Below are positions 4,777 through 63,976 of a DNA stretch of 64,000 bases, in pieces. Every line of letters starts with the position of its first letter. Within the stretch, counting starts at the first letter, position 1. Made by a program: the position numbers and the translations under genes. Origin of the DNA: Isoetes taiwanensis (lineage: Eukaryota; Streptophyta; Lycopodiopsida; Isoetales; Isoetaceae); NCBI GenBank assembly GCA_021234155.1, contig JAJEKV010000096.1:938010-1002009 (forward strand), given 5' to 3'. Below the pieces are notes generated by a model, which saw nothing but the letters and a program-made list of their open reading frames with translations, made no database searches and was not told the origin of the DNA.

Positions 4777-4921
4777 TTGCTTTTGAACCATCGTTCATTT
4801 AAATTGGGATTATGCCTTAATTTTAGGACAAATTTCATATTGTATATTTTTAATAGCATATTCAAATTCACACAAACTACCTCAAATGTATGAAAACTTA
4901 ATCTCATATTATTTTACAAAA

Positions 4922-7411: not shown

Positions 7412-9770
7412 TTGATAAATGACATATACTATTGTTCATCTTCCAAGTTGCTTGATTTCCATCGTGTGATCTGCAGAAAGTTATCAGATAATCCATCGTG
7501 TGACCTAGATAATACATTATCAGGTTGGACTGCAAAAAATAGCAGTTTAATTTTCAAATGGAGAGGAATCACTTGTTATTCTTCCTCTAGAAGGGTACAA
7601 GCCATATATCTTCAATTTTCTGAATTTGATTATAGACTTCATGGAACGCTTGGTGGTGAATTATGCAAATGCAGAGGTCTACAGAATTTGACAATAAGTG
7701 GCTCACATTTGAATGGTTCGATTGATGCATGTTTGATTCACTCTTTGCCCTTATCCTCTTGGATCTCGCCAACAATCAATTGAGTGGCGAGATTCCAAGG
7801 GAGCTGGGCAACTGTTCTGCTCTCCAATTTTTGTATCTCAGTTACAATAATTTGAGTGGCGAGATTCTAAGGGAGTTGGGCAACTGTTCTGCTCTCCAAT
7901 TTTTGTATCTCGGTGAAAATAATTTGAATGGCGAGATTCCAACGGAGCTGGGCAACTGTTCTGCTCTCCAATATTTGGATCTCAACAACAATCAATTTAT
8001 TGGCGAAATTCCAAAGGAGCTGAGCAACTGTTCTGCTCTCCAATATCTGAATCTCTGGAGCAATAATTTGAGTGGCGAGATTCCACGGAAGCTGGGCAAC
8101 TGTTCTACTCTCCAACATTTGGTTCTCAACGTCAATCGATTGAGTGGCGAGATTCCAAGGGAGCTGGGCAACTGTTCTGCTCTCCAATATTTGGTTCTCA
8201 GCGACAATCGATTGAGTGGCGAGATTCCAAGGGAGCTGGGCAACTGTTCTGCTTTCTCCTATTTTGATCTCTGGTACAATAATTTGAGTGGCGAGATTCC
8301 AAAAGAGCTCGGCAACTGTTATGCTCTCGGATATTTGGATCTCATGCGTGAGTGGCGAGATTCCAAAAGAGCTCGGCAACTGTTCTGCTCTCCAAGGTTT
8401 GGAGCTCGGCGAGAATCAATTGAGTGGCAAGATTCCAAGGGAGCTGGGCAACTGTTCTGCTCTCAAAGTTTTGAATGTCAGCAACAATAAATTGAGTGGC
8501 AGGATTTCAAGGGAGCTGGGCAACTGTTCTGCTCTCTAATCTTTGTATCTCAGCAACAATAATTTGAGTGGCGAGATTCCAAAGGAGCTGGACAACTGTT
8601 CTACTCTCCAAGATTTGGTTCTCAACGTCATTCGATGGAGTGGCGAGATTCCAAGGGAGCTGGGCAACTGTCCTGCTCTCAAATATTTGGATCTCAGTTT
8701 TTATCGGAACAAAACAATAATGGGCTCACAGGTAGTATACCAGAGGAGCTAGGTAAATCTTTTCTTCATTTGTTATATCTGCAAAGGAATAACTTATCGG
8801 GAGACATTCCAAGCAGATTGTTTGCTAATTGTTCTTTGAAATACCTAGATCTCAGTGCCAATAACTTGAGAGACAAAATTCCCAAGGAGTTGGGTAACTG
8901 CTGGGGTCTGAGGCTTCTTTTTTTAAACAATAACAGCTTGACTGTTATGCTAAATGAGCTTGCTAATCTCTCGTCGCTCACTTTTCTGGACCTCTCGAAC
9001 AATTATTTGGCAGGTAATATTTTAGGGTTGTGCAACTGGGAAGGTATTTTCTATCTCAACTTGGCATACACTAATCTAGAAGGCACAATTCCTCAATGTA
9101 TTGATACTTTTCGAAGAAATGCCACTTTAGATTTGTCAAATAATAAACTTACAGCAACCTTCCGGGAGATCTCAGAGGACTTAACAATGCGAGCTCCTGG
9201 AACAGTTTATGTTTTGAAGACAACATCACAATCTATATAAGATGGAAGGGTACAATCCACCCATTTCAATGTCAAGAAATAGCATAGAATATAAGAACAT
9301 CATTTGATGTGTCCAACAATAAGTTGAATGGACCCATTCCATGGCAGTTCGGTGATCTTGCAATGCTCAAGCAACTGAACTTATCGCATAACTACTTTAT
9401 CAGAGAGATTCTTCTCCAATTTCTTTCATGCAATAACTTAAGTGGTACAATCCCATCAAAGTTATGCCGCAATGACAACCTCGGCATGTATAATGTGTCT
9501 CACAACAATTTAAGTGGAGCTATTCCAATAGGTGGTCACTGTGACACCTTTAAAGCATCTTCATTTGAAGGAAATCCGCAACTATGTGGTCGACTTTTAT
9601 GAGTAAAACAACAATAAATTCAAATAGTAGAGATGGTTTAGCAAGGGAGAAACAAGATTGGAATAGCTGGTTAAAAGAATATCTTGAAAACCCAGGGCAC
9701 TTTATTGGAGCTTGTTTAGGCCTCCTATTGGACATAATATGTGCTTTAAAAGTGTAAAACAAGCTTATCA
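7412..9770 (+). pseudogene. LRR receptor-like protein pseudogene
   Basis: Extracellular LRR receptors bind peptide or pathogen ligands. The N-cap is clear: NPSCDLDNTLSGW, then KWRGITCYS at 7482-7580. About 20 plant-type LRRs follow (LxxLxLxxNxLSGEIPxELGNC), then the C-cap FEGNPQLCG near 9570-9597. After a stop, SWLKEYLENPGHFIGACLGLLL (about 9660-9735) looks like a remnant membrane segment of an LRR receptor-like protein; there is no kinase domain. Damage: frameshift near 7740, an 8-bp deletion near 8360, a CAA-to-TAA stop at 8537, a frameshift near 8700, a broken stretch at 9238-9310 and a stop at 9600. Signal peptide not found upstream. It is a relative of the LRR gene start split between 15103 and 25480, whose GITCY segment is closely similar. 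Confidence 0.9.
7801..8728 (+). repeat. Thirteen 72-bp LRR units in tandem
   Basis: Units beginning GAGCTGGGCAACTG start at 7801, 7873, 7945, 8017, 8089, 8161, 8233, 8305, 8369, 8441, 8513, 8585 and 8657. Spacing is exactly 72 bp (24 codons) except the 64-bp step at 8305-8369, an 8-bp loss that shifts the frame. DNA identity between units is high, so the array grew recently by unequal exchange and was still in frame for most of that time. Confidence 0.95.
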
Positions 9771-9959
9771 TTCAAATTCAAAGCCTGCTTTTATGGATTT
9801 CCGAAAAGATTGCATTGCCCATTAAATTGAGCAACTTGGATGCATTATAACCTAAAGCAAGTATATATGTTATAAAGTTTAACTAAAAAAATAGAAAGAG
9901 ATAATGCATCTAAAGTTTATGGGCATGTTTCAAAGATAAACATTTGTTCCATTTTTGTC
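9771..9959. other. No gene seen
   Basis: AT-rich 3' flank of the LRR pseudogene. Confidence 0.3.
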
Positions 9960-10258
9960 AGCTACATATTCTAAACGAGGTGCACCTTGGACTACCACAG
10001 TCGTCGGATTTGTCGATCCTACGACCCAGATTGTATGTTGGGGCCTGTGGGCACTTCTCGTTTCGCTTATAGTCATTTATGATTGGAGCCACCTATGATT
10101 TTGAAATATGAAATACGATTTCGCCTAAGGTTATGAGGGAATATCAAACCTCTATATGGTTTTGCTTAAGATTTTAGAATATAAAATACAGGGGCTCGAA
10201 CCTCTACCAAAATAACTCAATATCTTAATAAGACTACTTTAACCAATACACCTAGTGA
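9960..10258 (-). mobile_element. Possible tRNA-derived SINE
   Basis: On the minus strand a box-A-like TAGGTGTATTGGTTAAAG (about 10240-10257) is followed some 40 bases later by a box-B match GGTTCGAGCCCC (10191-10202), the spacing of an RNA polymerase III tRNA promoter. A tRNA-unrelated body would run left. The 3' end and target duplication were not found, and it could be a degenerate tRNA gene. Confidence 0.4.
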
Positions 10259-11251
10259 GCTAATGTGATTATTTTTTATCTTGAATCTATGTTTTTTTTT
10301 TATAACAACCCATTCAATTGTTTTAGGGATATATGGTCTATGGTTTTAGGAGTTGTTATTTTTACATTGATATCAAATCCCCTTGGAATCCCCTGTTATT
10401 TTGCTATATATTAAAGTCAAGCATAGATTTGACTAGGAAACCCCTAAATCAAATTTTTGCTTTATCAATGTGGCATGGATGGCACATCTATGATGCAGGT
10501 TGTAGAAGACTGCTAATGTCCATTACAAAGACCACATGCAGGAGCAGAAACACTTGGAGAATCAGTAGGGAGTTTCTTGGCTTGGCCAACAACACTACTC
10601 AGAGAGGTATGTACTGAAAATTTTACTGTAGCACTGTTGCTCTTTACTGTAGCTACTGTAGCATATTTCCTGTGTGTCACCTTTTCATGTGCTACTCACA
10701 TGCATACTCGTATGTCTACACAATAATGTTGCTACTGTACTGCTCGTACTATAAATATGAGTTCCTCTCAGTGGCAGCGCATTAATCATGTCCTGCAATC
10801 CGATCACATCCTGTTCTAATTGCAATTATCGATCTACCTTGCCATCGACTCCAAAATATGTGGATTCCATTCCATAAACTATTATGAAATTTATAGATGC
10901 CAGCAGAGGGGCTTGGAACATCCTTGGTTGCAGGGAGTTGTAATGGCCTCTGCTAGAAGTTATCCTGATACATATAAGATTGTCATCCACCTTGTATAGG
11001 TTCCAGAGCATGGTGTTTATGAAGTTAAGAGAGTGATCGTGCCACCTGCTTATGATGAGCCTGGTAGGTGAAAGAATTGTCCTCTTCTTTTGTAACTGCC
11101 ATGTTTTTTCCTTGTTGAATAAAAAGTCGCCTACATCCAGGCAAGAACTTGATTTGAAGTGACTCTGTAGTAGTTTTTTGGGTTAATTAACTAAATGTAA
11201 TATGTGTAGTAAATCTAACTATGAAATGAATTTTATAGAACATCTTAATCT
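10259..11251. other. LTR-like promoter remnant, otherwise nothing recognised
   Basis: Around 10615-10790 there are repeats of CTACTGTAGCACTGT style and a TATA-like CTATAAATATGAG at about 10749, features common in plant Copia LTR promoters. No partner LTR, primer site or coding domain was found. Confidence 0.35.
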
Positions 11252-11320
11252 CTCGCGCTCAGCGCGAGAAGAAAAGACTCGCGCTCAGCGCGAGAAGAAA
11301 AGACTCACGCCCAGCGCGAG
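11252..11320. repeat. E1 palindrome cluster A
   Basis: Three copies of a 17-bp palindrome, CTCGCGCTCAGCGCGAG at 11252 and 11278 and a variant at 11304, each separated by AAGAAAAGA, giving a 26-bp period. They lie just past the 3' end of the minus-strand ORF at 11421-11927. The same type of GC palindrome flanks the corresponding ORF near 56 kb. Confidence 0.9.
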
Positions 11321-11420
11321 AAGAATAAAAAACTAGAAATAACCTAACCACAGTTGACAAATTGTGAAAGTAAAAAAGTTTTTTATTCCAAAAAATATAT
11401 ACAACGGAGCTTTATAAAAG

Positions 11421-11927
11421 CTATTCTGGTAATACTAGTAGCAGTGGTGCAGGATCAATAATTACTGTCCTCTGTACAATGTAATCTAGTCTATCTGGAT
11501 CCAGCTTTGTCATCATCAGCAGACAGTTCATTTTGGCCTCTAGCATTCCTGAATGGTGGGTCCTCAGACTCTCTAACAAATCTTTTTGTCCAGGTTTCAG
11601 AATTAAGAAATGGCTCAAAACAAATCTAATGCCAATAGATGCAGCTGCGTGGAGGACTACTTTTGTAATCTGCGCATTAAACTCGGCTTCTGTTAAGGCT
11701 GCCACTTGTTTCACTGCACTTCCACATCCATCTCTCTCCTCAAAGACAGGGAGGAGACGGTCGAACTTCTTCACCAACCTATTAAAATCCCTAAACAGTG
11801 TTGCTTCCGGGATATCTCTATGAAGTGCCATGTCCCGGGCTTTAGTGAGGCTCAAGGCCAAGCCTCGCCTGTGCACATGACCATGGTTGGTAGCATCGAC
11901 ATGCACCAAACTGGTTTCATAACCCAT
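11421..11927 (-). CDS. 168-residue protein of element E1, unknown function
   Basis: Complete frame from an ATG at 11927 to a stop at 11421. No recognised domain. The protein is mainly helical in appearance, with RLVKKFDRLLPVFEERDG in the middle and a hydrophobic RFVLSHFLILKPGQKDLLESL segment. It is divergent to the DUF7869-type gene that starts near 12290, with palindromes on both sides (11252-11320 and 12060-12171). The E2 ORF at 55834-56205 has the same position relative to its DUF7869-type partner and a vaguely similar hydrophobic-plus-helical segment (MRLLMFLVNLMPTNKYENMI). A helper protein of the transposon is the natural guess; similarity between the two is too weak to claim by eye. Confidence 0.6.
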   Translation of the reverse strand: MGYETSLVHVDATNHGHVHRRGLALSLTKARDMALHRDIPEATLFRDFNRLVKKFDRLLPVFEERDGCGSAVKQVAALTEAEFNAQITKVVLHAAASIGIRFVLSHFLILKPGQKDLLESLRTHHSGMLEAKMNCLLMMTKLDPDRLDYIVQRTVIIDPAPLLLVLPE

Positions 11928-12059
11928 TGACCTAAAAAAAAAACTGCAGAGATTGGAATGACGAAATGATATTTGTACTGATTCAGCAAATATGAAATTG
12001 GAAATGTGCTACGAAATGGGATATCTAGTGGCGTGTCCAAATGGGATACTTTTGTATGC

Positions 12060-12171
12060 GTCGCGCCCAGCGCGACATAATCTATATTTGATAAATTAAT
12101 ATAACTTTCTTATGTATTTTACAAAATTATGGACCATACGTGTCGCGCGCACTGTCGCGCGTAGCGCAGTG
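12060..12171. repeat. E1 palindrome cluster B
   Basis: GTCGCGCCCAGCGCGAC at 12060-12076 and a compound palindrome built on GTCGCGCGCACTGTCGCGCG at about 12142-12171. They occupy the space between the divergent small ORF (ATG at 11927) and the DUF7869-type gene. Confidence 0.85.
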
Positions 12172-12289
12172 TAGGTATTGTATAAATATTTCATTTATTG
12201 TTATTGCATACAATACTTTAATCAAATTTGTTATTTTCAAATTTCTCATGAAGCTACTGCTGGGGAATCCTGTGACCAATAACATCGAG

Positions 12290-13400
12290 CAGAGAAGAAT
12301 GTTGATGCTGATTACATAGATGTGGAAGAGATTAATACAAATAAGAATGAACACCCACCTGAAGCAAATACAGAAAATATTAAAAACCCAGCTGGAGCTA
12401 ATGAGGAAAGAAGAATAGTAGTTTCTAGATTAACATGGAAGGATGAGAAAGTGATTTTGCATCATCAGTGCAATAAAGGAATTGTTGGTGAAGGTGTGCT
12501 TATACTATGGGATCCTATGCACTGCTATAATGGATAGGCTATTGGTGATGACGTTGTGGGAGTCTCCATTTCCTCAATACAACTTCATAACTTTAGTGTT
12601 GAGCTGAAGGACAAACACTGCTATGCTTGCAATAATATCAACATTGGTTTAGAGTTGCCAGCCTTTTTGCTCTGGCCAGTGGACTCCATTGAGATAATAG
12701 GAAAAAGAGATGCTTCAAAGAATTGAGCGTGTTGGAGAGAATAATGTGGTGGTGGATGAAAATGACATTCCTTCCATACCTCCTTTGGATGTATCCATAC
12801 CAGAAAGAAGGGCCTACAACTTCTTGAAGAGGAAGAAGATACTAACAACTTCAGTGAAGAGACCATCCAAGCCGTCGGGGGAGGGGGGGGGGGGAGATTG
12901 TGGCTACCCCAACAACTGCTTTGGTAGATTCACAGTGAAAGAACTTGTGGAAGCCCGATCAATCTACAAGGAGAAAACTCACGACGCTAGAAAAACTTAT
13001 ATTTACAACAATATCATAGAACATGCATTTGGGCTGTCACCTGATGTCAGGAACAGGGGATTTCCTATTGGTGGGAAACGGATATGCAGCAGTGCGGTGA
13101 CAACCATACTAAGTATTTTAGCCTCTACATGGTGGCGATTAAGGCGGAACCAAAAGAGGGGGGGCTCAAATAGGTTGGCATGGTAATCGGGAAAAGACGA
13201 GGACAACCCCCAGAGTGCTTGCAGCTCAGAGTTTATTCGAGAAGTTTGTTAACTATCATGCTGAGAGGAAAGTAGTTTGAATGTTGCCTGCATATTTTAC
13301 ACAAAAAGTGATTTTACAAATGATTAACAATCTTCTAGAGAGAACCATGTTATGATTCTATTGAGGCAAGTGTCAAGCAATTGGAGTCCTTGCAAGAACA
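12290..13400 (+). pseudogene. DUF7869-type transposon protein, N-terminal part
   Basis: Homologous along its length to the N-terminal half of the minus-strand protein at 51920-54830. Shared landmarks in order: an acidic N-terminus; VVSRLTWKDEKVI...CNKGIVGEGVLIL (E2: VLYTRVDWKNKKV...CNREAVGEGIIVL); CYAC followed by a P...WPxDSIEI segment; FTVKELVEARSIY (E2: FTIDEMVVARATY); RGFPIGGKRICSSA (E2: KRFPLNGKWICSKA); then HGNREKTR...AAQSLFEKFVNYHA (E2: HGNTGLVRP...AAKEIFERYVDFNA). There is an in-frame TAG near 12535, a G-run of about ten near 12885 that may be a slippage site, and frameshifts near 12710 and 13180. Homology stops near 13400, so the catalytic-looking half is absent. Truncated relic. Confidence 0.8.
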
Positions 13401-14324
13401 TTTACATATTAGCAACAATTGAGAACAAGAAATTCAAGCTTTTGATGGTTGATACCTTGAACATTTCTTGCTTCGACGCACACCCTAGAAAGCATATCTC
13501 AAACAAGCAGATAATGCTATAGCAATAGGTTTTTGAATAGTTGTGGCAAAGGTGTTTGGGATGTTATGTGTTATTGGCAGAGGGCTTTGAGCATGGTTTT
13601 GAAAGACAATAATTTTGCAATTATTGGAGCTGCCTTTTCATTCTCAATATGGACGTCTATTGGAATTGTTGTTTCCAAAGGTCTAATAGCTCACCTTTAC
13701 ATACAATGCATAATATAAAAAATGGCAACGAATCCTTTAAGGAAAAGAAAAGACAATGGCGCATGGCGCAAGGTAGATAAGCACAAATAGTGCTTCATGT
13801 TCGATAGCTACAAACTACCAATTGTGGATAGGACAAACAATGGAGAGCAGAAACAAGAGATAATGTGAGGGGTAATATTCATTGCAATAATACTGTTATT
13901 ACACAATGATTTACAACTTATCCCAAGCTACTAGAGAATCATAAGAAGGTTATAAAAAGAAATGAGCCCAACAAGACAACATTTATCCAAGCTACTAAAG
14001 GATCACAAGAAGGTTACAAAAAGAAATGAGCCCAAGAAGACAACATTTAAAAGAATGCATGAGGGGAGATAGGATTCTATAGTTTTGGGAGAGGGAATTT
14101 TGAACCACACGAATTCCATCAATATTTTGAAGGTGAAAGGGTTACACAAATCCATTTATGGCATAAGAATGAAGATCCGTGTAGTATACTTGTGTATAGA
14201 AGCAACATAGAATTTCCATGGACTTTGGAGATGAAAATGTATATGCCTTTTCTTCTAAATGCCAAGACCCCCTACCCCCCAAATGTATCTTCTCATTGTT
14301 CACTTATAACTTTACAGGTTCCCA
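13401..14324. other. No gene seen; 64-bp tandem duplication
   Basis: A 64-bp unit starting CCAAGCTACTA repeats at 13923 and 13987. Otherwise no domain. If the Helitron end at 14357 is real, this is part of that element. Confidence 0.4.
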
Positions 14325-14357
14325 ACTAATCCCTGCAACGCTGGGCACTGTTACTAG
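14325..14357 (+). mobile_element. Helitron-type 3' end (plus strand)
   Basis: Hairpin CCCTGCAACGCTGGG (14331-14345), eight bases, then CTAG at 14354-14357 followed by T. Upstream ACAGGTTCCCAACT is the reverse of the sequence beside the end at 4922, so these two ends belong to one family. The body would extend left, possibly across the E1 genes; the 5' end was not found. Confidence 0.65.
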
Positions 14358-51179: not shown

Positions 51180-51919
51180 CATTGCTCTTAATTTTTCTTG
51201 GAAAGGCATTATGGCTTCTTACCTATCAAAGAGCTTACCAGCAAAGATGATACTTAAAACTAAATAATATATTCATGTCTCAGCAATTTTTGTCTTTAGT
51301 CACCATAAGAGAGAGATAAAATGAACTAATCGGTACATTACATTGATTAGCAATATATCTTTGTAAAGAGAATTGAGATTGGGCAGATCTAGCTACATTA
51401 TGGAAGATCTGTTGCTTACACACATCTTTAGCGTATTGATTTCCCGCAGACAAATTGTTGCATAGCCATCAGGCACATCAAACTTATTTCCCAATAATAT
51501 GCACCACAATATAGGTCCACATCATCTGCTATGCAACCCTTTTCTCTAAGCACGTGTGCTCTAAAACTCCATACACAACTGTCATTAACTGTAAAGTAAA
51601 AAAAGATGTTTAGTTCAAAAGATCTACCTGAAGCGAAAACGAAATCCCTAAGAAAATGCCGTTGCTGAAACATTCTAAGACCATAATTGCATCTTCAAAT
51701 GAAAAAGAGTAAAGAAAAAACCATCATTCAAGTAAATTGGGATTATGTTTTGATTTTGGGATACATTTCTAATTGCAATTTTTTAGTAACATATAATCAC
51801 ACACCTTACACCTTAACTTCAAATTACAAAATCATATATCACACTTCTCAAGTAGTACACAACTTTTATTAACTGTGATTGATACATAGGTAATGAAGAA
51901 AACATATTTACATAGTTTT
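51180..51919. other. No gene seen
   Basis: A minus-strand frame at 51428-51673 is open but without a motif. It could be more PPR debris. Confidence 0.3.
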
Positions 51920-54830
51920 TCATTTTTCCACCAGCATCCCCAAGGATATGATAGCCTTATTCCTTACATCCTGAGGTATTGTAACTCTCGCTGTTTTACT
52001 TGGAATAGTTTTTGGAGTCCACGAGTACAATACGGTTTCAATGTCTAGCCGAAGATCAGGATCACTAGGATTTCTCCTCCACCTCTTTGTCCAACAATCT
52101 GAATATCTTTCTTTATCGGTGACATTGCTCAACTGATGTACTGGACACCACCATTCCACGCGCACCTTATTGAAGTTAACATCACCTTCTTCTTTGCAAA
52201 TATCTGAGATGGTGTATCCCAACCACACTGGATAGGTCTCTAGATCTGCTGGTTTTACTACTACAAATTGGTGGCACTCCACGTCAGTAGAAGGTTCATA
52301 ACAATCCATGCCTAGATATTTTGGCCTATCCTTCTTAGGACCAACATAGTGTTTATCAGATTGAGGAGGAGCATTATGCCTTAACAATGCTACTAATGGT
52401 ACCATCATCTTCGTCAGCACCAGCTAATGTTTTTCACCTACTTTTAGGGAACCACCCTTCTTTCAGCTCTTCTGAGGATGTGTCTATCTCATCCAACAAG
52501 TTGATCACCTTCTTCCAATAATCTATCAATGCACGATTAGTCTCATCCGAATTAGTTTGCCAATGCTTGATGTAGTCATTGATGCCATCCTTAGTCAATC
52601 CCAATTGCTTCACTTCTTCAGTTGGTTTTAGAGCTTTTGGTTGACCAAAAGATATCATAGACTTGCCATTTGCATCCCTGTGCCAAATTTCTGCCCCACC
52701 TCTCCACTTCTCCTCTGAAGGTCTCATTTTCCATTGCATGATTGGAATCCCTTCTCTCACCCAAAAAGTGAATTGAAGAGGTCTAGAATGACCTTCCATG
52801 TCGAGAGTATAACCATCTACAAAACTCTTCCAATCAGGCACTTCTTCTATGAGAGATCCTATAGGAGATGGAGTAGTACATCCATAAAATATTTCCAATA
52901 GCCTGGGAAAGTTGGTAACTGTCTGCTGTCTCAATACATGACTATATTTTCCAAACAATGTGTCCACATCCTCATGAGTATGTCCGGGCATTAGGAACCC
53001 CAAATTGACTCTTTCAAAAATACCCACAGCTGTTAAGTAGGATAGGAAAGAAAACATCCACCTGTTCTTATTTTGACCAGCACAATTATCAAGTTGCAAG
53101 AGGAGCTTTCTGGGCAGATCTCGAGGTTTAGCACGAGATGTTGAAGCTCCAACATGTTCATTAGGTCCATGCCTCCTAAACCTTGCCTTGCTAAACTTTT
53201 CAATACTATTAGGGGTTCTATCCAACAATGCACTATGTAGTGCCTGGCTAGCTGTAGGATCCTGGAGGTGACCATTGTAACCATTCTCATAGTTTCTTAA
53301 ACACCTCATGATACTCTCAATGTGAAAATCTGGACCATCACTCCACAACTCTAAACTGAAATGGCCATAGTAGGTCTGAGACTGCCCATGCAAGATTGCC
53401 CCAGTCATTGAAATCTGCAAAGGGTATGATCTTCCACATGGCTTAGGTATGTACTTGAATTGTGGAAGACAAGTCTTCTGTTGGTCCATTTTATCATGTA
53501 TAATACATAGATAGTTATTAGGTTCCATTGCAGATAAGGTCCTCCACATCCAATAAGTTGATCTACATGATAGTTGATCTGTCATATGGTCCTTCATATG
53601 TTCCCTTATCTTTGCCCTTAGACTTGGTTGCACAGTCTTATCTAGTGTCTCCTTCAGCTTAACACATAAACTGCACTTTGCAAAGTTGTTTGAAGTTGCT
53701 ATAGTCACATGCTTGAAATGCTTATTCCATAGCCTACTAAACCTGGGCTGGGATATAGAGGCCACTCCAAGTTCCCGAAGCAATGCATTTATTTCCTCTA
53801 ATATGCTCTTCTGGGTACAATGGGATGGCAATCTCTTTTCAACAATAACTCTACCATGTTCATCCTTCTTACTCTTATGTGGCATGCTTGCTGCATTGAA
53901 ATCCACATATCTTTCAAATATTTCCTTTGCAGCTATAGTTCTTGAGGTAGGCCTTACCAGGCCAGTGTTCCCATGCAATGCAATTTTACTACCATTTTCA
54001 TGTCTCTTTTTTGCGGTTTGTGCCACGAAGAGGTTGGAATTCCATGTATAGCCATCCATGCTTTTGAACATATCCACTTTCCATTCAATGGGAATCTTTT
54101 CTTCTTTGATCTTTCATCCTGAATTGCATAGCCAAATATGGTGTACATGAAATTCCTCCTGCTATCACACTTATGTTCCTGATATGTAGCTCTTGCTACC
54201 ACCATCTCGTCTATTGTGAACATTCTAATACAGGAGGCCCAACAACATTCACTTCCTCTAACCTTCATCAGGGCTTCAGGAGAACAATCATAATCTGACT
54301 TGCATCTTTTGGTAGGATAATGTTTGAAAGTTGGAAGTGGCCTCTTGCTACACCGTGTGAACATTATTGACAATGGTTCTGCATCTATGGGAAACATGTA
54401 GTTCCCCTCCAGTTGAATACTGTCCCTAGGCCATGCAACAATAGTTGGAACCTCTAGTTGCTTCACACAAGCAAGGCATTCTTGTTTGCCTGACCCATTT
54501 TCCTTCCAATTGTCATATAATTTTGAGATTGCCACCCTAACCTGTCCTCCCCTGATCTTTCATCATTGACTGCATTGATAGAATCTGCTAGAACAATAAT
54601 CCCTTCTCCTACTGCCTCTCTGTTGCATGCATGCAAGATCTTGACCTTCTTGTTTTTCCAATCGACCCGAGTATAAAGTACAATTTCCTTTCCTTTGGCA
54701 TCATCCTTTTCATTTGTGGTCTTTTCCTTCCTTTGCCATCATCAACATCATTTGGAGTCTTTTCCTTTCGTTTGCCATCATCAACATCATTTGAGGTATT
54801 TTCCTTTCCTTGGGCATCATCTTCTCGGCT
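51920..54830 (-). pseudogene. DUF7869-type transposon protein of element E2, full length but frameshifted
   Basis: Probably the main protein of a DNA transposon. From the N-terminus: a Lys/Asp repeat (NDVDDGK type, 54815-54690), VLYTRVDWKNKKVKILHACN, CLAC...VAWPRDSIQL, FTIDEMVVARATY and RFPLNGKWICSKAW (to 54040), then IAAKEIFERYVDFNA, a CSLCVKLKE Cys pair, and the core: CIIHDKMDQQKTCLPQ, LQLDNCAGQNKNRW and MPGHTHEDVDTLFGKY (about 53110-52930), whose conserved Asp, Asn and His residues suggest a metal site. C-terminal part (52420-51920): VKPADLETYPVWLGY, a small SH3/BAH-like domain, WCPV and YSDCWTKRWRRNP. Breaks: one base in an A-run near 54030, another near 54720, and a frame change at 52430. 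I know the core as DUF7869, from memory; the enzymatic role is inferred. Confidence 0.8.
54690..54815 (-). repeat. Coding ~36-bp repeat (Asn-Asp-Val-Asp-Asp-Gly-Lys)
   Basis: Three to four tandem copies of GGAAAAG-ACTCCAAATGATGTTGATGATGGCAAA-type units in the N-terminus of the DUF7869-type protein, giving charged repeats such as NDVDDGKRKEKT. A one-base difference near 54720 shifts the frame. Confidence 0.75.
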
Positions 54831-55566
54831 TATATTGTAAATCTCGGCTTTTTTCTAAAAAAATTGGCTATTGTTTTCGGCTTTTGATTTCGGATCAAAG
54901 GTTTCGGCTCAAATCTCGGGTACTGAAGACAAATAGGTTGGTATTTCCTAACTTTCACTTAAAGTCTGCTATTTTGTTCTTATTTTTATTATGGTATTTG
55001 AAAGAACACATATTTTCTTCTAGTTTCTCCTATTCATATCTCTTATTCTTATTTCTTTTCTAGGTATTCTTTTGTTTAGAACAGATCAGAAATTGAACTA
55101 AATAATGTGTATTATATATCTGCTGTAGCTGATGTTCTTATTCTATCTGCTTTTTTTCTTTCTATGTGTTCTTATTATTCTTATTCTTGTTCTATCTGTT
55201 CTGTTCTATCTGCTCTTATTCTATCTGTTCTGTTCTTATTTTATCTGCTCAAATTCTATTCCACTGGCTTCATATTCTATTTCACTGGCTCTTATTCTAT
55301 TCCACTGCCTTGATACTCTGTTTCACTGGCTCTTATTCTATTTCTCTGGCTCTTATTCTATTCCATTGGCTCTGATTCTATTTCACTGGCTTCATATTCT
55401 GCTATTTCGTATCTGCTATTTATTTTGCATTCTGCTCTTACTCCATTTCATATATCTATTCATTTTCACTGGTTTCTGGTATTTCATCCTTGCTCTCTAC
55501 CTGTAAGTAGACATGTTTTTTTTTATGCTTATTTCTTTTCTATAGAATGATATGTTAGAATGGACG
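54831..55566. repeat. Upstream region with TTCACTGGCTCTTATTCTA-type repeat
   Basis: 55140-55410 contains about nine degenerate copies of a 20-23 bp unit, ATTCTATTTCACTGGCTCTT, and the TCTATCTGTTCT variant. It lies in the shared upstream space of the divergent E2 genes. Open frames across it are low-complexity Phe/Leu/Tyr strings and are not genes. Confidence 0.7.
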
Positions 55567-55747
55567 AAATCGCGCTTGGCGCATTTCTAGTTTGGCTTTC
55601 TATTTCCTACTAGGTTAATCAAATCGCGCAGGCGCGTTTCTAGTTTGGCCTTTCTATTTTCTACTACTTTTTACAAATCGCGCCAGGCGCGTGTGAAGTA
55701 GATCTTTGTAAAAACACACTATAGAAAACGTGTCTGACGCGTTTTGA
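55567..55747. repeat. E2 palindrome cluster A
   Basis: Four palindromes: AAATCGCGCTTGGCGCATTT (55567), AAATCGCGCAGGCGCGTTT (55621), AAATCGCGCCAGGCGCGTGT (55675) and AAAACGTGTCTGACGCGTTT (55727). Spacing is near 54 bp, with TTCTAGTTTGGC repeated after the first two. It lies directly upstream of the ORF at 55834, in the space shared with the divergent DUF7869-type gene. Confidence 0.92.
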
Positions 55748-55833
55748 ACTATTTTGAATATTTAGAATTATTTTCTGGGGAGAGGAATATCATTTGCTAA
55801 TTAGTTAATTTCTCTCGTTCTAGTGCATTACAC

Positions 55834-56205
55834 ATGGCTGATTCTCGTTCAACTATACTTTCTTTGGACGACAATCAACGCTGGACCCTATACAAGATAC
55901 TACTAAATTGTGATGTTCAAAACCTAAGAAGAGAGTTGGACAAGCCATACGACAGTCTGTATCAGGGGCTATGGAAATGCTACCATCGCATCACAGGGTT
56001 TATGCGGCTCCTCATGTTCTTAGTAAACCTCATGCCAACAAATAAATATGAGAATATGATTAGGAAGGCCAGAGATCAACGGGACACTCTGATTTGGAGA
56101 CTCGACATTCCCAGGGAATGGGAGGATGATGTCATATCAGAGTGGTATAGTTGGGACTGGACTCGGTATTTAGCCGATGAAGTGGGCCTATGTGATATTT
56201 TGTAG
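55834..56205 (+). CDS. 123-residue protein of element E2, unknown function
   Basis: Complete frame from ATG to TAG, mostly helical, rich in Trp, Arg and Asp: DDNQRWTLYKILLNCD, KCYHRITGFMRLLMFLVNL, RKARDQRDTLIWRLDIPREW, ending DWTRYLADEVGLCDIL. No family recognised. Palindrome clusters lie on both sides (55567-55747 and 56263-56347), and the large transposon gene is divergent from it, as in E1 where the partner is the ORF at 11421-11927. The intact frame beside a decayed partner hints at either youth or selection. Possible roles are a transposase cofactor or a binder of the palindromes; neither is shown. Confidence 0.7.
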   Translation: MADSRSTILSLDDNQRWTLYKILLNCDVQNLRRELDKPYDSLYQGLWKCYHRITGFMRLLMFLVNLMPTNKYENMIRKARDQRDTLIWRLDIPREWEDDVISEWYSWDWTRYLADEVGLCDIL

Positions 56206-56262
56206 AGATGTGGACAGCCTCCTATGTTAGATATGTACAGCCTCCTATGTTAGCTTAGAAAG

Positions 56263-56347
56263 AACTCGCGCCTGGCGCATTTTCACAGAAGAAGAAATGT
56301 ACATCTATTTTTTGAATATGAATACAAACTCGCGCCTGGCGCAATTT
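56263..56347. repeat. E2 palindrome cluster B
   Basis: AACTCGCGCCTGGCGCATTT at 56263 and AACTCGCGCCTGGCGCAATT at about 56328, 65 bp apart, just after the stop of the 123-residue ORF. Between 56215 and 56256 CAGCCTCCTATGTTAG is also doubled. Confidence 0.9.
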
Positions 56348-56411
56348 TGCACCTAATACTTTTATGTCACACTTATTTTATTATGTTTTTTTATACGCAA
56401 TATCGAGAACA

Positions 56412-56529
56412 TTGAAATCCTTTGATGCCCTCCAGCCAGTATGACCAACCCCAAGAAACTACACATTTTAATTCATGTGTGGTTTCATGGGGTTGATAAG
56501 ACTGGCTAAAGAGCATCAAAGAATTCAAA
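56412..56529. ncRNA. Foldback with 47-bp arms and 8-nt loop, candidate small-RNA hairpin
   Basis: Left arm 56420-56466 and right arm 56475-56521 are complementary at 39 of 47 positions, with loop TTTAATTC; pairing extends to about 56412 and 56529. Size and shape fit a plant miRNA precursor or a very short MITE. Most mismatches are C/T changes that become G:U pairs in RNA. I do not recognise a known miRNA. It lies between E2 palindromes and the next exon-like ORF. Confidence 0.45.
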
Positions 56530-57352: not shown

Positions 57353-57470
57353 ATGGCGTCTAGAGGATCTGGCAGCCGCGACCGAGGCGCAGGTAGAGGT
57401 GGGCGACAGGCCAAAGTAAGCCTGGAGCTTGCAGAACAAGCAGAAAGCACAAATCCAGCAAGCGCCTCAG
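57353..57470 (+). CDS. First-exon-like ORF, basic Gly/Arg-rich N-terminus
   Basis: ATG opens MASRGSGSRDRGAGRGGRQA and continues SLELAEQAESTNPAS to CAG|GTATTAAT, a good splice donor at 57471. The next exon is not identified; candidates are the plus-strand exons beyond 61.5 kb, which would make a gene with a 4-kb intron that holds the SWIM gene on the other strand. Unrecognised protein. Confidence 0.4.
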
Positions 57471-57821: not shown

Positions 57822-57908
57822 AAAACGCCCCTGGCGCAGTTTAATAAGTCATTACATTAGTTTCTTTTCCTTCGAATCTATATTGACGAAATGCCCCTAG
57901 CGCAATTT
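57822..57908. repeat. E2 palindrome pair C
   Basis: AAAACGCCCCTGGCGCAGTTT-type site at about 57822-57842 and GAAATGCCCCTAGCGCAATT at 57888, both followed by TAATAA. They are decayed versions of the E2 palindrome. They lie in the putative intron after 57470. Confidence 0.75.
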
Positions 57909-57937
57909 AATAAATTTATAATCTCTATTCAGTTTGG

Positions 57938-57985
57938 GGAATTTTATTTGGAGGGTTTTTTTGTGGATGGCTTAGAGGGTTTTAC
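57938..57985 (+). repeat. Left copy of a 45-bp inverted pair (GGAGGGTTTTTTT)
   Basis: GAATTTTATTTGGAGGGTTTTTTTGTGGATGGCTTAGAGGGTTTT in pieces; the inverse with small changes lies at 62476-62522. CGCG-type half palindromes adjoin both copies. They may be terminal repeats of a 4.6-kb element that holds the SWIM gene. Confidence 0.5.
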
Positions 57986-58234
57986 AAGTGAATATTCCTT
58001 AGAATATTTTGTTATGGCATGTTGTACTAGTTGCCATTTTTTTGGTAACATGTATCAGAATGAACATATACCAGAATGAATTCTGTACGAGTCAACGTAT
58101 AGCAAAATCAAGATGGACTGAATAATATATGTATTGCATACATTCACTAATATATACAGTGCAGGTTACCAGCCACACTATTAACTATTAGAATTTGATA
58201 TGAAAAAGTTCGTACAAAGAACTGTGGTTGTTCC

Positions 58235-58996
58235 TCAAGGAAGGAGCCTATGTAGAACATCCTCTGTCAACACAGGTTGAATGATGTCAAAAAAAAACCT
58301 AGGGTCATGGTTGACTTTCGCAAATACGTACATCAGACGTTTACATGGAATATATACCCTTTTCAGTTCTCTGCCCATGAAATCCAGGCATGTGCATGTG
58401 GGATGCTTGCAGACCCTTACTGTATAAGTTTCATCTGGTCGACGCACCTGGTACTCAACATCCGTGTGGTGGATATTGACCTTTATGGACTCAATATCAC
58501 ACTCCAGTTGTAAAGCTTGATTAAGCTTTGTTTCAGCTTCTACACAAAGCTTCCCTCGTCTGTTCATGCGCTTCCCAAAACGTTCCATGAAGTGGGAAGA
58601 GGTGTTAATAGTAGGAGAATTCACACTAGTCACATTGGGAATTGAGCTCCTTGGATTAATCCCTCTAATAGAAAAGTTTCCTTTCTCCAATATTTCCAAC
58701 TCTGCAGTAGTGATATTCACACCCTTTGCCACAGGCCAATCTGCTGGACGAGTAGGTGTGGCTATGATGCCCGCAACTGGATAGTAGGTATGCTGCACAT
58801 TTTGAGGACAAAACCAAAACCTTTGTGTGACCTCTCTACCATTTGCTTTCCTTTGCCCAGTGAAGCATGGTGCAATAGTGGATTCTGTACGTACCCTATT
58901 AATTTCAGAATTGCATCTTCGACCATTGGACTTGATTCTACCTTGACATCTTATTTTACTACCAGGAAAGCTACAACAGATAGCAAGGAAGTCCAT
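58235..58996 (-). CDS. SWIM-motif protein, possible transposon protein
   Basis: Single-exon frame of 253 residues from ATG at 58996. The N-terminal half has Cys/His pairs (IRCQGRIKSNGRRC, APCFTGQ, FWFCPQNVQHTYYP), a possible zinc-binding module. A linker follows, and near residues 195-235 YTVRVCKHPTCTCLDFMGRE...YIPCKRLMYVF resembles a SWIM finger (CxC...CxH), where the last His is replaced (CKRL for the usual CKHL). SWIM fingers occur in MULE transposases and in some host regulators. No DDE catalytic domain is present. It is opposite in strand to the exons around it and lies between inverted copies at 57938 and 62476. Function unknown; a transposon accessory or captured gene. Confidence 0.55.
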   Translation of the reverse strand: MDFLAICCSFPGSKIRCQGRIKSNGRRCNSEINRVRTESTIAPCFTGQRKANGREVTQRFWFCPQNVQHTYYPVAGIIATPTRPADWPVAKGVNITTAELEILEKGNFSIRGINPRSSIPNVTSVNSPTINTSSHFMERFGKRMNRRGKLCVEAETKLNQALQLECDIESIKVNIHHTDVEYQVRRPDETYTVRVCKHPTCTCLDFMGRELKRVYIPCKRLMYVFAKVNHDPRFFFDIIQPVLTEDVLHRLLP

Positions 58997-59622
58997 GACA
59001 TGGACTACTCAAAGAAGGTTATGTTAGCAACAATGACTTCATAGCCAGAACGACGGTATTTCTTTTTCAAGCGTATATTCTCAAACCAAAATAAAAAACA
59101 TAACACTTCAACTAACTAATTGCCACTTAAACAAGGGGCAATCCAAACATACCAATCTAATTAGGTATTACATTTATAATATGTATTCTTATGATATTCT
59201 TGTTCATATTCTAGTTCTTGACCCCAAAATGACAAATTGTGGTTCCTGGTAACTATGCAATGTTGTGGAATGGGCATTAGCCATGGTTATTCCTTGTACT
59301 ATAATCCATAACTAGAAGTGGAATGCCATTCTGGTAAACCCTAAAAGTGTTGAATTACCGAGTAATCATTGCAATATTTGTGGTCATACACTCATGAAAG
59401 ATGCAATGTCAACAAAAGAATTAGAATTTATAAAATCATTAAGCATATACAATGCATAGTAGATAACATAATTGTCCCTCTTGCTTAGACTGATGTGACA
59501 TGACACCTACCATGAGCCCAAATCCGAAAATGCAAGGATTAATTATGTTTGACAACAAGGTCTTCTTGGAAAAAAAGTGAAGGACATTTTCAAAAAACAA
59601 CGTTCAGGTGGGAAACGCCTGT
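58997..59622. other. No gene seen
   Basis: AT-rich; presumably 5' flank of the SWIM gene. No motif found. Confidence 0.35.
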
Positions 59623-60110
59623 GCCTTCCAGATCGAGTGCGGCGGCGCTCCTCCTTCTTTCTGTGCTAGCCAATCTGACTGTGGGGCTCCCTTCACATCG
59701 CTAATGCAGATTTCGCAACTGGTAAATACTCTTCTTTTGATTTTTCTGTACTTCTTCTTTTGATTTGCAAAAAAATTCGCCTTCCGGATCGAGTCGCGGG
59801 CGGCTCCTCCATGTTTTTGTGCAATCCGGACTGAATGCGGGGGCTCCATTCGAATATGGTAATAGCTTTTTTTTTGTGCTACTTAAGCAGCTGTCTTCCT
59901 ATCAAAAAAATACTTTCTTCATGATCCGGAATGGGGCCTTCCAGGCCGAAAGTCGCGGCGGCTTGCTCAACTATTTGTGCAATCAAGTTCTTGGAAAAAT
60001 ATATCTCGACTCCATACTCCGCTTAGGTGGGAAAACGTCACGTGCCTTTTTGGACCTAGTCGCGCGGGCTCCCCATGTTTACGTGCGGGGAAATAGCTCC
60101 GCATAAGCGG
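59623..60110. repeat. Degenerate ~156-bp repeat, four units
   Basis: Units begin GCCTTCC.GATCGAGTCGCGGGCGGCTCC or variants at 59623, 59779, 59936 and 60044, followed by ATGTTTTTGTGCAATC-like sequence and an AATACT-rich spacer. The GC-rich core has decayed in each copy. Frames on either strand are by-products. Confidence 0.6.
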
Positions 60111-60610
60111 TATTACAGATTTTGCAACAAAATACTACGGATTGATCTTTGGAAGTTGTGTGTGGGCGTGTAGAGATCTTATAGTATAGCATGAATACTT
60201 TGTCTGCATTTCTTTTGGTCCCCTTACGTATGGCTTTGACACCAAATCAAAGAGCACAAGAAGCAACAAAGAAAGGAAATTACTGATGGCAATGCTTGGT
60301 GGAGCGGAGACCTTTCCCTACTTTGGAACATGCCTAAATCCGACATGGTGGAGCCTGCTTTGTAACAACGGAAGCGAAGATACTCTTTACATGCGGGGGT
60401 CCAGCTCATTAGGTCCAAGTTTTGCCTCATTTATTGCCCTCCATCATCTTGTATCTTTTCTTCCCAATTCCCATAATAACCGAAGAGATGAACCCATTTT
60501 CCTTATGCAAATTTCGGCTTCCATGTCCCGTTGGTAGTTTGTTGAGCAACCTCTTATGTATTTTTGTTGAGCAACCTTGTTGCCTTAACTTATGTACTGT
60601 TAACTGATGC
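60111..60610. other. No gene seen
   Basis: GTTGAGCAACC.TCTTATGTATTTTTGTTGAGCAACC near 60540-60578 resembles 61490-61515 beyond the second 195-bp repeat. Confidence 0.35.
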
Positions 60611-60805
60611 CTTAAATGTTTTAAATGTACAGCTTTGGCTTTTGCCTTAAATCTTTGCAATGTTACCATAAAATGGCATGCTCAGCATATAACAGCTTCA
60701 GCCATAGCCTGTCCATTTTTTATCCCTTTGGTATGCTAAATGCAAACTCCTGAAGATGCCATTCTCTTGCAGCCTGCATGCCTCAAAGATTGGCATCATG
60801 ATCTT
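60611..60805. repeat. 195-bp direct repeat, copy 1
   Basis: CTTAAATGTTTTAAATGTAC to GGCATCATGATCTT. The second copy at 61284-61478 differs at only a few positions. The LRR fragment lies between them, and its frame ends inside this copy. Confidence 0.92.
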
Positions 60806-61140
60806 CTGATGCAAGTAGCCTTCTGAGCAGGAAGATTTGTTTGATGATTATAATAAACATTGAAGTTTTGTAAATTAGATACATTTACAGCATGAAGTTG
60901 CCCTGATAAGGAATTGTTAGACAGCCTCAAGGTTAACATATGGGACAGCGATAACAATGATGGAATTTGGCCAGTAAGGTTATTGGATGATAAATCTACT
61001 CTGTTCACACGAATGAAGGAAGCAATAGACGTTGGAATCTGGCCTGAAATTTCATTTTGCTGCAAATAAAGACCCCGTACATTCCTACAACGCGACAAGT
61101 CTGGAAGGCTGCCAATCAAGGCATTTCCTCTCAAGTTCCA
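60796..61140 (-). pseudogene. LRR-III type receptor kinase fragment
   Basis: Minus strand: NLRGNALIGSLPDLSRCRNV, LYLQQNEISGQIPTSIASF, VDLSSNNLTGQIPSLLSLSH, LRLSNNSLSGQLHAVNVSNL and QNFNVYYN. This is the ectodomain of the LRR-III receptor-like kinases, ending with the LxxFNVSxN motif. No membrane segment or kinase follows; the frame ends in the 195-bp repeat. Different family from the LRR genes at 7.4 and 15.1 kb. Confidence 0.8.
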
Positions 61141-61283
61141 AGAGATTCTATAGAGCCTCTAAGGTGAGCATTTGGTAGGATGATTTTAAATACACGGCCC
61201 CTCTCACATACTATACCTCTCCAGCTGCTATCACATGGATTTCACAGCTGCTATCACTGATGCCTTGATTATTTTAAATGTAC

Positions 61284-61478
61284 CTTAAATGTTTTAAACG
61301 TACAGCTTTGGCTTTTGCCTCAAATCTTTGCAATGTTACCATAAAATGGCATGCTCAGCATATAACAGCTTCAGCCATAGCCCGTCCATTTTTTATCCCT
61401 TTGGTATGCTAAATGCAAACTCCTGAAGATGCCATTCTCTTGCAACCTGCATGCCTCAAAGATTGGCATCATGATCTT
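61284..61478. repeat. 195-bp direct repeat, copy 2
   Basis: Partner of 60611-60805. High identity suggests a recent duplication or the two sides of an insertion. Confidence 0.92.
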
Positions 61479-61702
61479 GATTATTTTGTTTGTTGAGAAA
61501 CCTCTTATGTATTTTTCATTGTCTAACCTGTTTTGGCACTTTAAATATTGCAGGAATCAGCTCGGTTTGGACCATCTGGTTATTTGTTCTAGCATAGTTA
61601 TGGGGGGCTCCAGACACACCGGTAAACACAAAATTTATTTGAAAAAAAAATACTGTTCTTCTTGAAGATTATGTGTTGTGATGTTCAAGGACATGTTCGG
61701 TT

Positions 61703-62120
61703 ATGGTTTACACTAGAAACAAAACTCCCATCCCATTTGTCCCTCTTGCTTACACACCCCCAAAGAGAAGGCGGCAGAAGCACTCAGGTTCACTAGAGGT
61801 ATCAATAGGTGACACAAACAGTATAAACCCAGGAAAAGCATTCACCGATTTAGCAATGGGAAAAGATACAGAAAGTTCAATGGTAGAGAAAGGCCTAGTA
61901 AATGATGTCCAGGATATGACTGCCACTGATCCAGAATTTGCCCAGGTATGTCGCTGTTTCATTAGATCATTTTCCTTCTCTGCTTGCGAAATATGTAACC
62001 ATGAAATTTGTGTAGGTTTTTGCTCACGAGATTGTTGCTGACATAATGAGTAAATGTCGCATCGAGAGAGGATCAGAACCTCCCAAGATACCTCTTTGCC
62101 GTATCTTGCGGAATCTTTAG
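61703..62120 (+). CDS. Two-exon small protein, unknown
   Basis: Exon 61703-61945 from ATG (MVYTRNKTPIPFVPLAYTPP, a KRRRQK basic patch, ending DPEFAQ) with donor CAG|GTATGT, and exon 62016-62120 after TGTAG (VFAHEIVADIMSKCRIERGS to RILRNL and TAG). Phases match; 115 residues. KRRR may be a nuclear localisation signal. A further exon-like frame at 62180-62280 (SIASVFSKREPPVQKERRRR...VDDECVEG) follows TATGCAG and could be an alternative end. Not recognised. Confidence 0.45.
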
Positions 62121-62280
62121 CAATTATGGTAGTACTACTTATCCTTTTTAACATATTAGCATTCTTCCTGTGTATGCAGAATCAATAGCTTCAGTTTTCT
62201 CAAAAAGGGAACCTCCAGTTCAGAAGGAAAGAAGACGTAGACGTTGTCTACTTGTAGATGACGAGTGTGTAGAAGGATGA

Positions 62281-62630
62281 GGACTTCATGTCGTCTAGGT
62301 TTTCATAACATTATTATGGATTATAGTATTTTGTCTTCCATAGTTCACTTCAAACTATTTCTTTTAAACTACTTCTACATACTTTAATGCAGTGTTATTT
62401 TCTATAGTATGGAGTCTTCAATTGCATCTTCTACACCTCAAAACCAATGGCAAAAGCAGAATTTGATGTGACAATCTAAAAAAACCCTCTAAACCCTTCC
62501 AAAAAAAACCCTCCAAAAATTCGCACTCTTCAGTTTCAAAACGCGCCAAGCCCTCGTTTTTGTTGCATACGTTGCAAGTTAGCATATATTTTGGCATTAA
62601 AATATTAATCCATGTGCTGTAATTTTGCAG
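62281..62630. other. Intergenic or intron; inverted copy of 57938
   Basis: 62476-62522 is the inverse of the GGAGGGTTTTTTT sequence at 57938-57985. A half palindrome AAAACGCGCCAAG lies at about 62538. Confidence 0.5.
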
Positions 62631-63730
62631 GAACACAAAAAACAATCAAAAGGAAAACCAAACACAGCGAGACCTCTTCAGCCCAGAAAAAGTAAAGGAC
62701 AGATGAAGATATTACTGTTACAGACCTGCAGCATGTATTGACGTTAGAAGATACATATGGAATAATAAAGGCTCAGGTAGAACCTCCATGTCCAGAAGAA
62801 GATCTTATAGAGGGGTCAGAATGGTATGTCGAAATCTTCAAAACTGCCGGGAAGACAGACCTTATATTCATGTCTAGGGTAAGAGAGACTGATCAAATGA
62901 AGAAGCAGGGCATTCTTATCACATATGAAGAACATGACGATTCTTCTTGTTCAGTGTTAGTTGAAGTGGGCCAAAAAAATAAGAAGAGCCTAAAGAAGAT
63001 CAATCGATGCAGTTCTAGCTCTTTTAAAGAGACTGCATTAAGTTCAGACGACACGGCCGATTCCCTCTTCAAATTTGGCTGGACAGTTGGCGAGCCATTG
63101 ACGCCTAAAATAATATGCGAAGGGCTTTCAACTGTTCGACGAGCCATCAGCACGAGGCTCTCGGGCAGTGTCTACCTGCAGGCAGTGAAGGATAAGGAAG
63201 ATGCTAGTTCTAGAGGCAGGGACAATACAGAAGTGACATCATGCCTTATAAGTGATGATGACAAGGCCAGGCAGTTGGAGGCAATGAGCAAACTGAAAAA
63301 ATATGCTGACAAGTATCCACTGGGCCTGAACTTCACCCATCCAGTCCACGTGGATAGGCTTTTCAGGTCCACTAAAGCCATTTATGTCAGCAGAAGGTAC
63401 GACAAGCAGCACTCCCTGGAGATAGTGAACAGCATGATCGAAAATCCAGGGCAGGTGCCAATGCCTGCAGATGTAGTGTCTTACGATACAAGAACAAAGA
63501 AGGTAATCATGTGGAGCAAGCTGGAGGACTTCATCGAGAACCAAGACATACATTTCATGATAATAGATGGCCAGCACTCAATTGAGGCCCAGAAGGTTCT
63601 GACAGGAAGGCACAAAATACTGAAAATCAGCTGTTCTATAAGATGTATTCTGTCAGAAACTGCCGGTTCCTGAGCAGCTCAACAACACCTGCCGAACTAG
63701 CCGAAATAAGCGCATCCTGAATGACATGGG
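62631..63730 (+). pseudogene. DGQH-motif protein of the E2 region
   Basis: Acceptor TTTTGCAG at 62630 opens a frame with a TAA at 62693; beyond it, ITVTDLQHVLTLEDTYGI runs open to 63671. The protein has an acidic first half, then LNFTHPVHVDRLFRSTKAIYV, ENPGQVPMPADVVSYD and HFMIIDGQHSIEAQKVLTGR near the end. The layout (a set of positions to visit, then a DGQHR-like box followed by an Ala-rich helix) recalls the DGQHR/ParB-type nuclease-like fold of DndB and ParB relatives; here Ser replaces Arg. After 63671 the reading shifts: SSSTTPAELAEIS and RILNDMGKTFLYK continue in other frames to a donor AAAAG|GTAACT at 63751. Truncated by the window edge. The start may be an acceptor after the TAA (GGACAG at 62700) rather than a broken codon. 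Confidence 0.5.
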
Positions 63731-63788: not shown

Positions 63789-63976
63789 AAATCGCGCCAG
63801 GCGCGATTTCCTTTTCAAATCGCGCCAGGCGTGATTTTCCTACTCTGAAGAGAAAAGGCTTCTTAGAATGGTCGTTTCTCTTCAAATAAGCAAATCGCAG
63901 TCGTTTCTCCTCAGAGTAGGCAAATTGCGCATGGCGCGGTTTGCATTCTAGTATGAAATCGCGCCAGGCGCGATTT
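63789..63976. repeat. E2 palindrome cluster D
   Basis: Four sites: AATCGCGCCAGGCGCGATT (63790), AATCGCGCCAGGCGTGATT (63818), AATTGCGCATGGCGCGGTT (63923) and AATCGCGCCAGGCGCGATT (63957). The first and last are perfect apart from the centre. They lie just beyond the donor at 63751, probably in an intron. Confidence 0.93.

What the first reader, a model, noticed from the sequence alone, without database searches (positions are those of the whole stretch)
51920..56347. Divergent gene pair of an undescribed plant transposon lineage (E2), with a decayed sister copy E1 at 11.2-13.4 kb
Both E1 and E2 have a DUF7869-type protein gene divergent from a small all-helical ORF, with GC palindromes in the space between them and past the small ORF. 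The large proteins are clearly homologous across their N-terminal halves yet well diverged, so this is a repeated architecture and not one recent duplication. The core LQLDNCAGQNKN and MPGHTHEDVD motifs look like a nuclease or integrase metal site. A conserved two-gene plan plus dedicated palindromes suggests a self-contained mobile system.
Basis: partly seen in the sequence, partly recalled or inferred. Interest (0 to 1): 0.9.

Follow-up and report, generated by a model that had tools for sequence, protein, structure and literature searches.

The report
Large multi-gene eukaryotic DNA transposon
The two-gene region is the left part of a roughly 12-14 kb cut-and-paste transposon with dozens of copies in a large, probably plant, genome; its protein of unknown function looks like a transposase with relatives in bacterial insertion-sequence-like elements, and it carries extra genes and its own set of palindromes.

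Summary
Nine further copies from the window's own 1.66 Gb genome show that E2 is the left part of a DNA transposon of 12.0-13.7 kb (17.0 kb in one copy). It starts abruptly at window 51719 with a 30-bp inverted repeat; all 4 copies with both ends have 4-bp target duplications. The DUF7869 protein is most likely its transposase: predicted RNase H fold, three conserved Asp, best structural matches Mos1 and retroviral integrases. Six bacterial DUF7869 ORFs examined (of 11 loci) all lie between 30-60 bp inverted repeats. The element also carries the small ORF, a strong hairpin, a DGQH-motif gene, an FCP1/NIF-like phosphatase, and 15-20 palindromes (CGCGCCWGGCGC, up to 2 mismatches) in each of four complete copies, none in their 24 kb of flanks. 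The window copy is broken, holds a nested 4.6 kb element and runs past the window. E1 is a remnant with only the transposase N-terminal part and a different palindrome. DDD residues, 4-bp duplications, size and bacterial kin fit the Sola superfamily; homology to a named Sola transposase could not be tested. Accessory genes and palindromes are the unusual part.

The parts
51719..51748 (+). left terminal inverted repeat of the element, AACCATCATTCAAGTAAATTGGGATTATGT
   Evidence: abrupt loss of similarity outside it in 6 of 9 other copies; the repeat stands at both ends of 4 copies
51920..54740 (-). DUF7869 transposase gene, broken in this copy (frames 51920-52423, 52434-54113, 53954-54559 and an upstream stretch)
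   Evidence: Pfam PF25273 E 4e-40; tblastn of relatives along the region; predicted RNase H fold
54684..54851 (-). tandem repeats of about 39 bp, read as a charged N-terminal repeat of the same gene in another copy
   Evidence: family D3; ORF of copy c1071
55571..55745 (.). palindromes between transposase and small ORF (55571, 55625, 55679, a weak one near 55729)
55834..56205 (+). small ORF, 123 aa, divergent from the transposase
   Evidence: match in 9 of 9 other copies (copies were chosen by DNA that includes it); frame intact in 7 of 20 loci, window included; dN/dS 0.50 in frame against 0.79 and 0.81 out of frame
56263..56347 (.). two palindromes past the small ORF
56416..56525 (+). hairpin with 51-nt arms; -62.4 kcal/mol, z -11.6; a strong fold is kept in 20 of 20 loci
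57353..57469 (+). putative first exon of the next gene (MASRGSGSRDRGAGRGGR...); exon end guessed by eye
   Evidence: ORF; the same frame is readable in copy c1071, in c1049 only another frame is listed
57826..57837 (.). palindrome (1 mismatch) of the same family
   Evidence: clusters in the corresponding part of other copies
57936..62528 (.). nested 4.6 kb insertion, not part of the element: 8-bp duplication TTCAGTTT, imperfect inverted ends
   Evidence: copies c1041, c1028, c1045, c1055, c1071 and c1049 read straight across, c1076 nearly; duplication
62696..63673 (+). exon with MIIDGQHSIEAQKVL motif (DGQH; ParB/DndB-like only by recalled motif)
   Evidence: ORF; homologous stretch in 8 of 9 copies; dN/dS 0.42 in frame against 0.82 and 0.68
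63793..63972 (.). palindrome cluster near the window end
11253..11319 (.). E1: three tandem copies of the E1-type palindrome TCGCGCYCAGCGCGA
11421..11927 (-). E1: small ORF, 168 aa, unrelated in sequence to that of E2
   Evidence: no match in the E2-family copies at E 1e-4
12061..12167 (.). E1: palindromes between the divergent ORFs
12322..13337 (+). E1: remnant of the N-terminal part of a related transposase
   Evidence: tblastn, ORFs; no DUF7869 hit
4786..4815 (+). second left-type terminal repeat in the window, 3 mismatches, of a truncated or decayed element

Best explanation
E2 is the left part of one copy of a large cut-and-paste DNA transposon. Shown: 30-bp terminal inverted repeats, 4-bp target duplications, dozens of copies, and reading frames that recur together in copies (transposase with DUF7869, small ORF, DGQH-motif exon, long 502-aa exon, NIF-like phosphatase). 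Inferred: the DUF7869 protein is the transposase. It binds the inverted repeats, cleaves and joins DNA with a DDD metal site (Asp342, Asp384 and, first, Asp207 or Asp210 of ORF 52434-54113) and makes 4-bp staggered cuts in the target. Inferred, weaker: the palindromes, confined to the element and placed between genes or exons, are binding sites of an element-encoded protein (the small ORF or the DGQH protein) that controls expression or assembly. The element most probably belongs to the Sola superfamily (about 0.75). Bacterial insertion-sequence-like elements with the same protein are its prokaryotic relatives.
Confidence: 0.86

Rival explanations
1. The element is a TIR transposon, but of a superfamily not yet described rather than a Sola element.
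For: Pfam carries the transposase only as a domain of unknown function; no NCBIfam model reaches its cut-off on the six bacterial proteins; no paper in the library holds DUF7869 or the motif DNCGGQNKN.
Against: DDD residues, 4-bp TSD, TIR, size range and bacterial kin are in the printed description of Sola (PMC10741241 passages).
Confidence: 0.2
2. The DUF7869 gene and the palindrome-bearing right part are two different elements lying side by side in the window.
For: In the 4-kb loci of the first search similarity often began at window 54820, right of the transposase gene; the window lacks about 1 kb there; 2 of 9 copies have no transposase match.
Against: With 20 kb per copy, the transposase block lies left of the 54820 junction in 6 of 9 copies (c1071, c1041, c1028, c1045, c1049, c1076), with about 0.9-1.2 kb more between than in the window (2.7 kb in c1045); one TIR pair bounds both parts and the TSDs flank the whole in c1071, c1028 and c1049.
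Confidence: 0.02
3. DUF7869 here is a host gene or domesticated nuclease, not a mobile element.
For: None found.
Against: Dozens of copies on many contigs, terminal repeats and TSDs, broken reading frames.
Confidence: 0.01
4. The small ORF is not a gene but a chance open frame in the intergenic part of the element.
For: No homologue in the protein search; intact in only 7 of 20 loci; E1 and E2 small ORFs unrelated, 10 of 72 other open frames of 90 or more codons score as high on codon use, though several of these are Copia pieces.
Against: Codon score 0.030, within the 0.028-0.082 of the six training ORFs, while the low-complexity frames beside it score about -0.12; dN/dS 0.50 in frame against 0.79 and 0.81 in shifted frames; a small ORF at the same divergent position in E1.
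Confidence: 0.25

Closest known systems
Sola superfamily of DNA transposons
   Same: DDD transposase, 4-bp TSD, TIRs within 11-1124 bp, size within the printed range (2-9 kb, some over 15 kb), relatives in bacteria (description read as passages of PMC10741241)
   Different: Homology to a named Sola transposase untested. The DGQH and NIF frames and 15-20 palindromes are not mentioned in the passages read; whether Repbase Sola elements have them is unknown to me.
Bacterial insertion-sequence-like elements with DUF7869 (L001, L002, L004, L005, L007, L011)
   Same: Same Pfam family and conserved D, DNC...NKN, GHT...D core; terminal inverted repeats 6 of 6
   Different: One ORF seen between the repeats, 2.1-2.7 kb, ends TGGGG at all but one of the 12 ends; no clear TSD; L007 is 17-25% identical to the window and P rows
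Tc1/mariner (Mos1) transposases and retroviral integrases
   Same: Best structural matches of the catalytic domain
   Different: No sequence match in the PDB profile search; mariner TSD is TA (PMC10741241 passage), here 4 bp of varied sequence
VANDAL/VANC anti-silencing systems and ParB/parS (recalled, not looked up)
   Same: Family-specific short motifs repeated in non-coding parts of one element or replicon
   Different: No homology shown; the binding protein here is unknown

Membership tests
Sola | DDD catalytic residues in an RNase H-fold transposase | tested here: met
   D342 and D384 conserved, first Asp D207 or D210; right order in predicted models; catalysis itself not tested
Sola | 4-bp target site duplication | tested here: met
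   4 of 4 copies with both ends
Sola | terminal inverted repeats of 11-1124 bp, variable termini | tested here: met
   30 bp
Sola | size 2-9 kb, some over 15 kb | tested here: met
   12.0, 13.1, 13.7 and 17.0 kb
Sola | relatives in bacteria | tested here: met
   11 loci in bacterial records
Sola | sequence similarity to a named Sola1, Sola2 or Sola3 transposase | not testable with these tools
   no Repbase; founding paper not held
Kolobok | TTAA target duplication (recalled) | tested here: not met
   TGAT, ATTA, TGGA, TTGG
Tc1/mariner | TA target duplication | tested here: not met
   4-bp duplications
Mutator (MULE) | 7-12 bp target duplication | tested here: not met
   4 bp
Ginger | Gypsy-like integrase (Pfam rve, recalled name of the family) | tested here: not met
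   no rve hit in the transposase ORFs up to E 1
AcademX | 3-4 bp TSD with an encoded nuclease | tested here: inconclusive
   4-bp TSD fits; no nuclease family above its cut-off among the ORFs scanned, but not all exons are resolved

The most novel reading that the evidence does not exclude
The element carries a dedicated sequence-recognition system. A protein it encodes (the small ORF or the DGQH protein) binds the family-specific palindrome CGCGCCWGGCGC at 15-20 sites between its genes, to counter host silencing, regulate its genes or gather the element for transposition. E1's different palindrome would show protein and site changing together between families. This would be a VANC-like or ParB-like system in a transposon superfamily where I know of none, together with a captured NIF-type phosphatase.
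Probability: 0.3. Interest if true: 0.78.

Novelty: new variant of a known kind. Interest (0 to 1): 0.58.

Why it matters
It gives a likely function to a domain of unknown function (DUF7869 as a DDD transposase) and ties it to bacterial elements with inverted ends that no NCBIfam model names. It also shows a transposon of 12-14 kb that carries regulatory-looking genes and its own set of CG/CWG-rich palindromes, a ready test case for how large transposons escape silencing.

Tried and rejected
Tried without result: TIR/TSD search from the window alone (for E2 no better than shuffled controls; for E1 the best candidate, 6835-14349, scored above its five controls, but its repeat also occurs at 4930, so I read it as a dispersed repeat and did not settle it). 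Viral contigs with the E2 protein: no pattern match; with the alignment: 29 stretches, none confirmed. Plasmid and phage records with the bacterial protein: no match. PDB by sequence: none for the DGQH ORF (E up to 1), the transposase profile or the SWIM-like ORF (E up to 10). Rfam: none at gathering. Paper searches for DUF7869 and for DNCGGQNKN: 0 papers each. ISDol1, considered as a bacterial namesake: one paper, seen only as a listing.

Rejected: the SWIM-like ORF 58235-59008 as part of the element (it lies in a nested insertion that 6 of 9 copies lack at that site); a separate third element 'E3' at 57.8-64 kb; E1 and E2 small ORFs as homologues. Tree: the bacterial rows form one side of a supported branch, but P0020 joins them on a long branch and the sources of the P rows are not named ('euk' was my label), so I draw no history from it.

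Full report
OBSERVATION. ORF 52434-54113(-) matches Pfam DUF7869 at E 4e-40. Relatives align along 54.7-51.9 kb with frame changes at about 54.01 and 52.38 kb and a stop near 52.43 kb, so this copy is broken. The protein search gave 20 relatives; the nearest is 85% identical over 52% of the query, on a 2.2 kb contig. The small ORF 55834-56205(+) had no homologue. The palindrome CGCGCCWGGCGC occurs far above chance (24 matches on two strands, 13 sites, 0.8 matches expected). In a scan for GCGC palindromes 11 of 12 merged sites lie at E1, E2 or a third cluster at 63.8-64.0 kb. E1 keeps only an N-terminal stretch homologous to E2.

THE ELEMENT. The window lies in a 1.66 Gb genome of 1110 contigs. 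DNA 55400-56420 gave 40 scored places of 646 candidates; most of the main matches are 81-95% identical. I read 20 kb around nine of them. Six of nine share an abrupt left end at window 51718/51719 with unrelated flanks. The right end lies beyond what the window copy keeps; five of nine copies show it. Both ends carry the same 30-bp repeat in inverted order. All four copies with both ends have 4-bp duplications: TGAT (13,652 bp), ATTA (13,071 bp), TGGA (12,041 bp), TTGG (17,041 bp). For equal base frequencies the chance of four such matches is about 2 in 10 billion (inference). The window copy lacks about 1 kb at 54.82 kb, holds a nested 4.6 kb insertion (57936-62528, duplication TTCAGTTT), and loses similarity 2,295 bp past the window end, with no right repeat found in the 20 kb read there.

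GENES. Copies carry, from left to right: the transposase (pieces in 7 of 9; in c445 only a short one at its own left end), the small ORF (9 of 9, but the copies were chosen by DNA that includes it) and the DGQH exon (8 of 9); then a 502-aa frame (DNA kept in 7 of 9 others and in the window copy's extension) and a frame with a NIF phosphatase domain (DNA kept in 5 of 9; E 8.9e-15 in c1049, 8.6e-11 in c1071). Gene borders and splicing are not established. In-frame dN/dS among copies against the two shifted frames: transposase 0.55 (0.61, 0.69; 7 sequences), small ORF 0.57 (0.68, 0.79; 10), DGQH 0.42 (0.82, 0.68; 8), long frame 0.44 (0.76, 0.94; 8), NIF 0.41 (1.29, 0.89; 5); a non-coding stretch gives 0.73, 0.71, 0.98. 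On 20 loci the small ORF gives 0.50 (0.79, 0.81) and is intact in 7. The pairs are not independent and no errors were computed; the sign of selection is stronger for the right-hand frames than for transposase and small ORF.

PALINDROMES AND HAIRPIN. Each complete copy has 15-20 palindromes (up to 2 mismatches), in clusters between genes or exons, none in its left 4.7 kb or more, and none in the 24 kb of flanks of the four copies. E1 has a different one. The hairpin at 56416-56525 (-62.4 kcal/mol, z -11.6) keeps a strong fold in 20 of 20 loci (-47.6 to -71.0 kcal/mol over 170 nt).

COMPARISON. I read passages of PMC10741241: Sola elements encode a DDD transposase, have 4-bp TSDs, TIRs of 11-1124 bp and sizes of 2-9 kb with some over 15 kb; [quoted passage not shown] Every one of the structural features I could test fits; whether this host fits is unknown. 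The defining homology could not be tested: no Repbase is on hand and the founding paper is not held (its existence recalled). Part 1 of 5 and passages of PMC10045372 and passages of PMC4455052 were read for superfamilies and their TSDs. I therefore call it a probable Sola element, about 0.75, in an unusual large form.

VERDICT. What is new to me is DUF7869 as its transposase, the bacterial elements, and the accessory frames with their confined palindromes. No paper of the held library names DUF7869; preprints and most subscription journals are not in it.

Noticed in passing
window 57936-62528: Nested 4.6 kb element with 8-bp duplication TTCAGTTT and imperfect inverted ends, carrying a SWIM-like zinc motif ORF (by eye; no Pfam hit) at 58235-59008 and a leucine-rich-repeat-like piece (by eye) at 60796-61158: may be a MULE that captured host sequence.
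   Followed up: partly
window 56416-56525: Very stable hairpin inside the element, kept in 20 of 20 loci; could be a source of small RNAs.
   Followed up: partly
window 4786-4815: A second left-type terminal repeat of the same family without a recognised element behind it.
   Followed up: partly
window 10961-11022: Short similarity (77%) to the right-end region of two E2-family copies, beside E1; orientation relative to the transposase differs from E2.
   Followed up: no
window 4930, 6835 and 14349 (minus): Three copies of an about 48-bp repeat AGTGCCCAGCGTTGC..., two orientations, of unknown kind; one pair frames E1.
   Followed up: no
window 60600-60805 and 61274-61478: 206-bp direct repeat, 97% identical, inside the nested insertion.
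   Followed up: no
window 16-37 kb: Several Copia-type retrotransposon ORFs.
   Followed up: no
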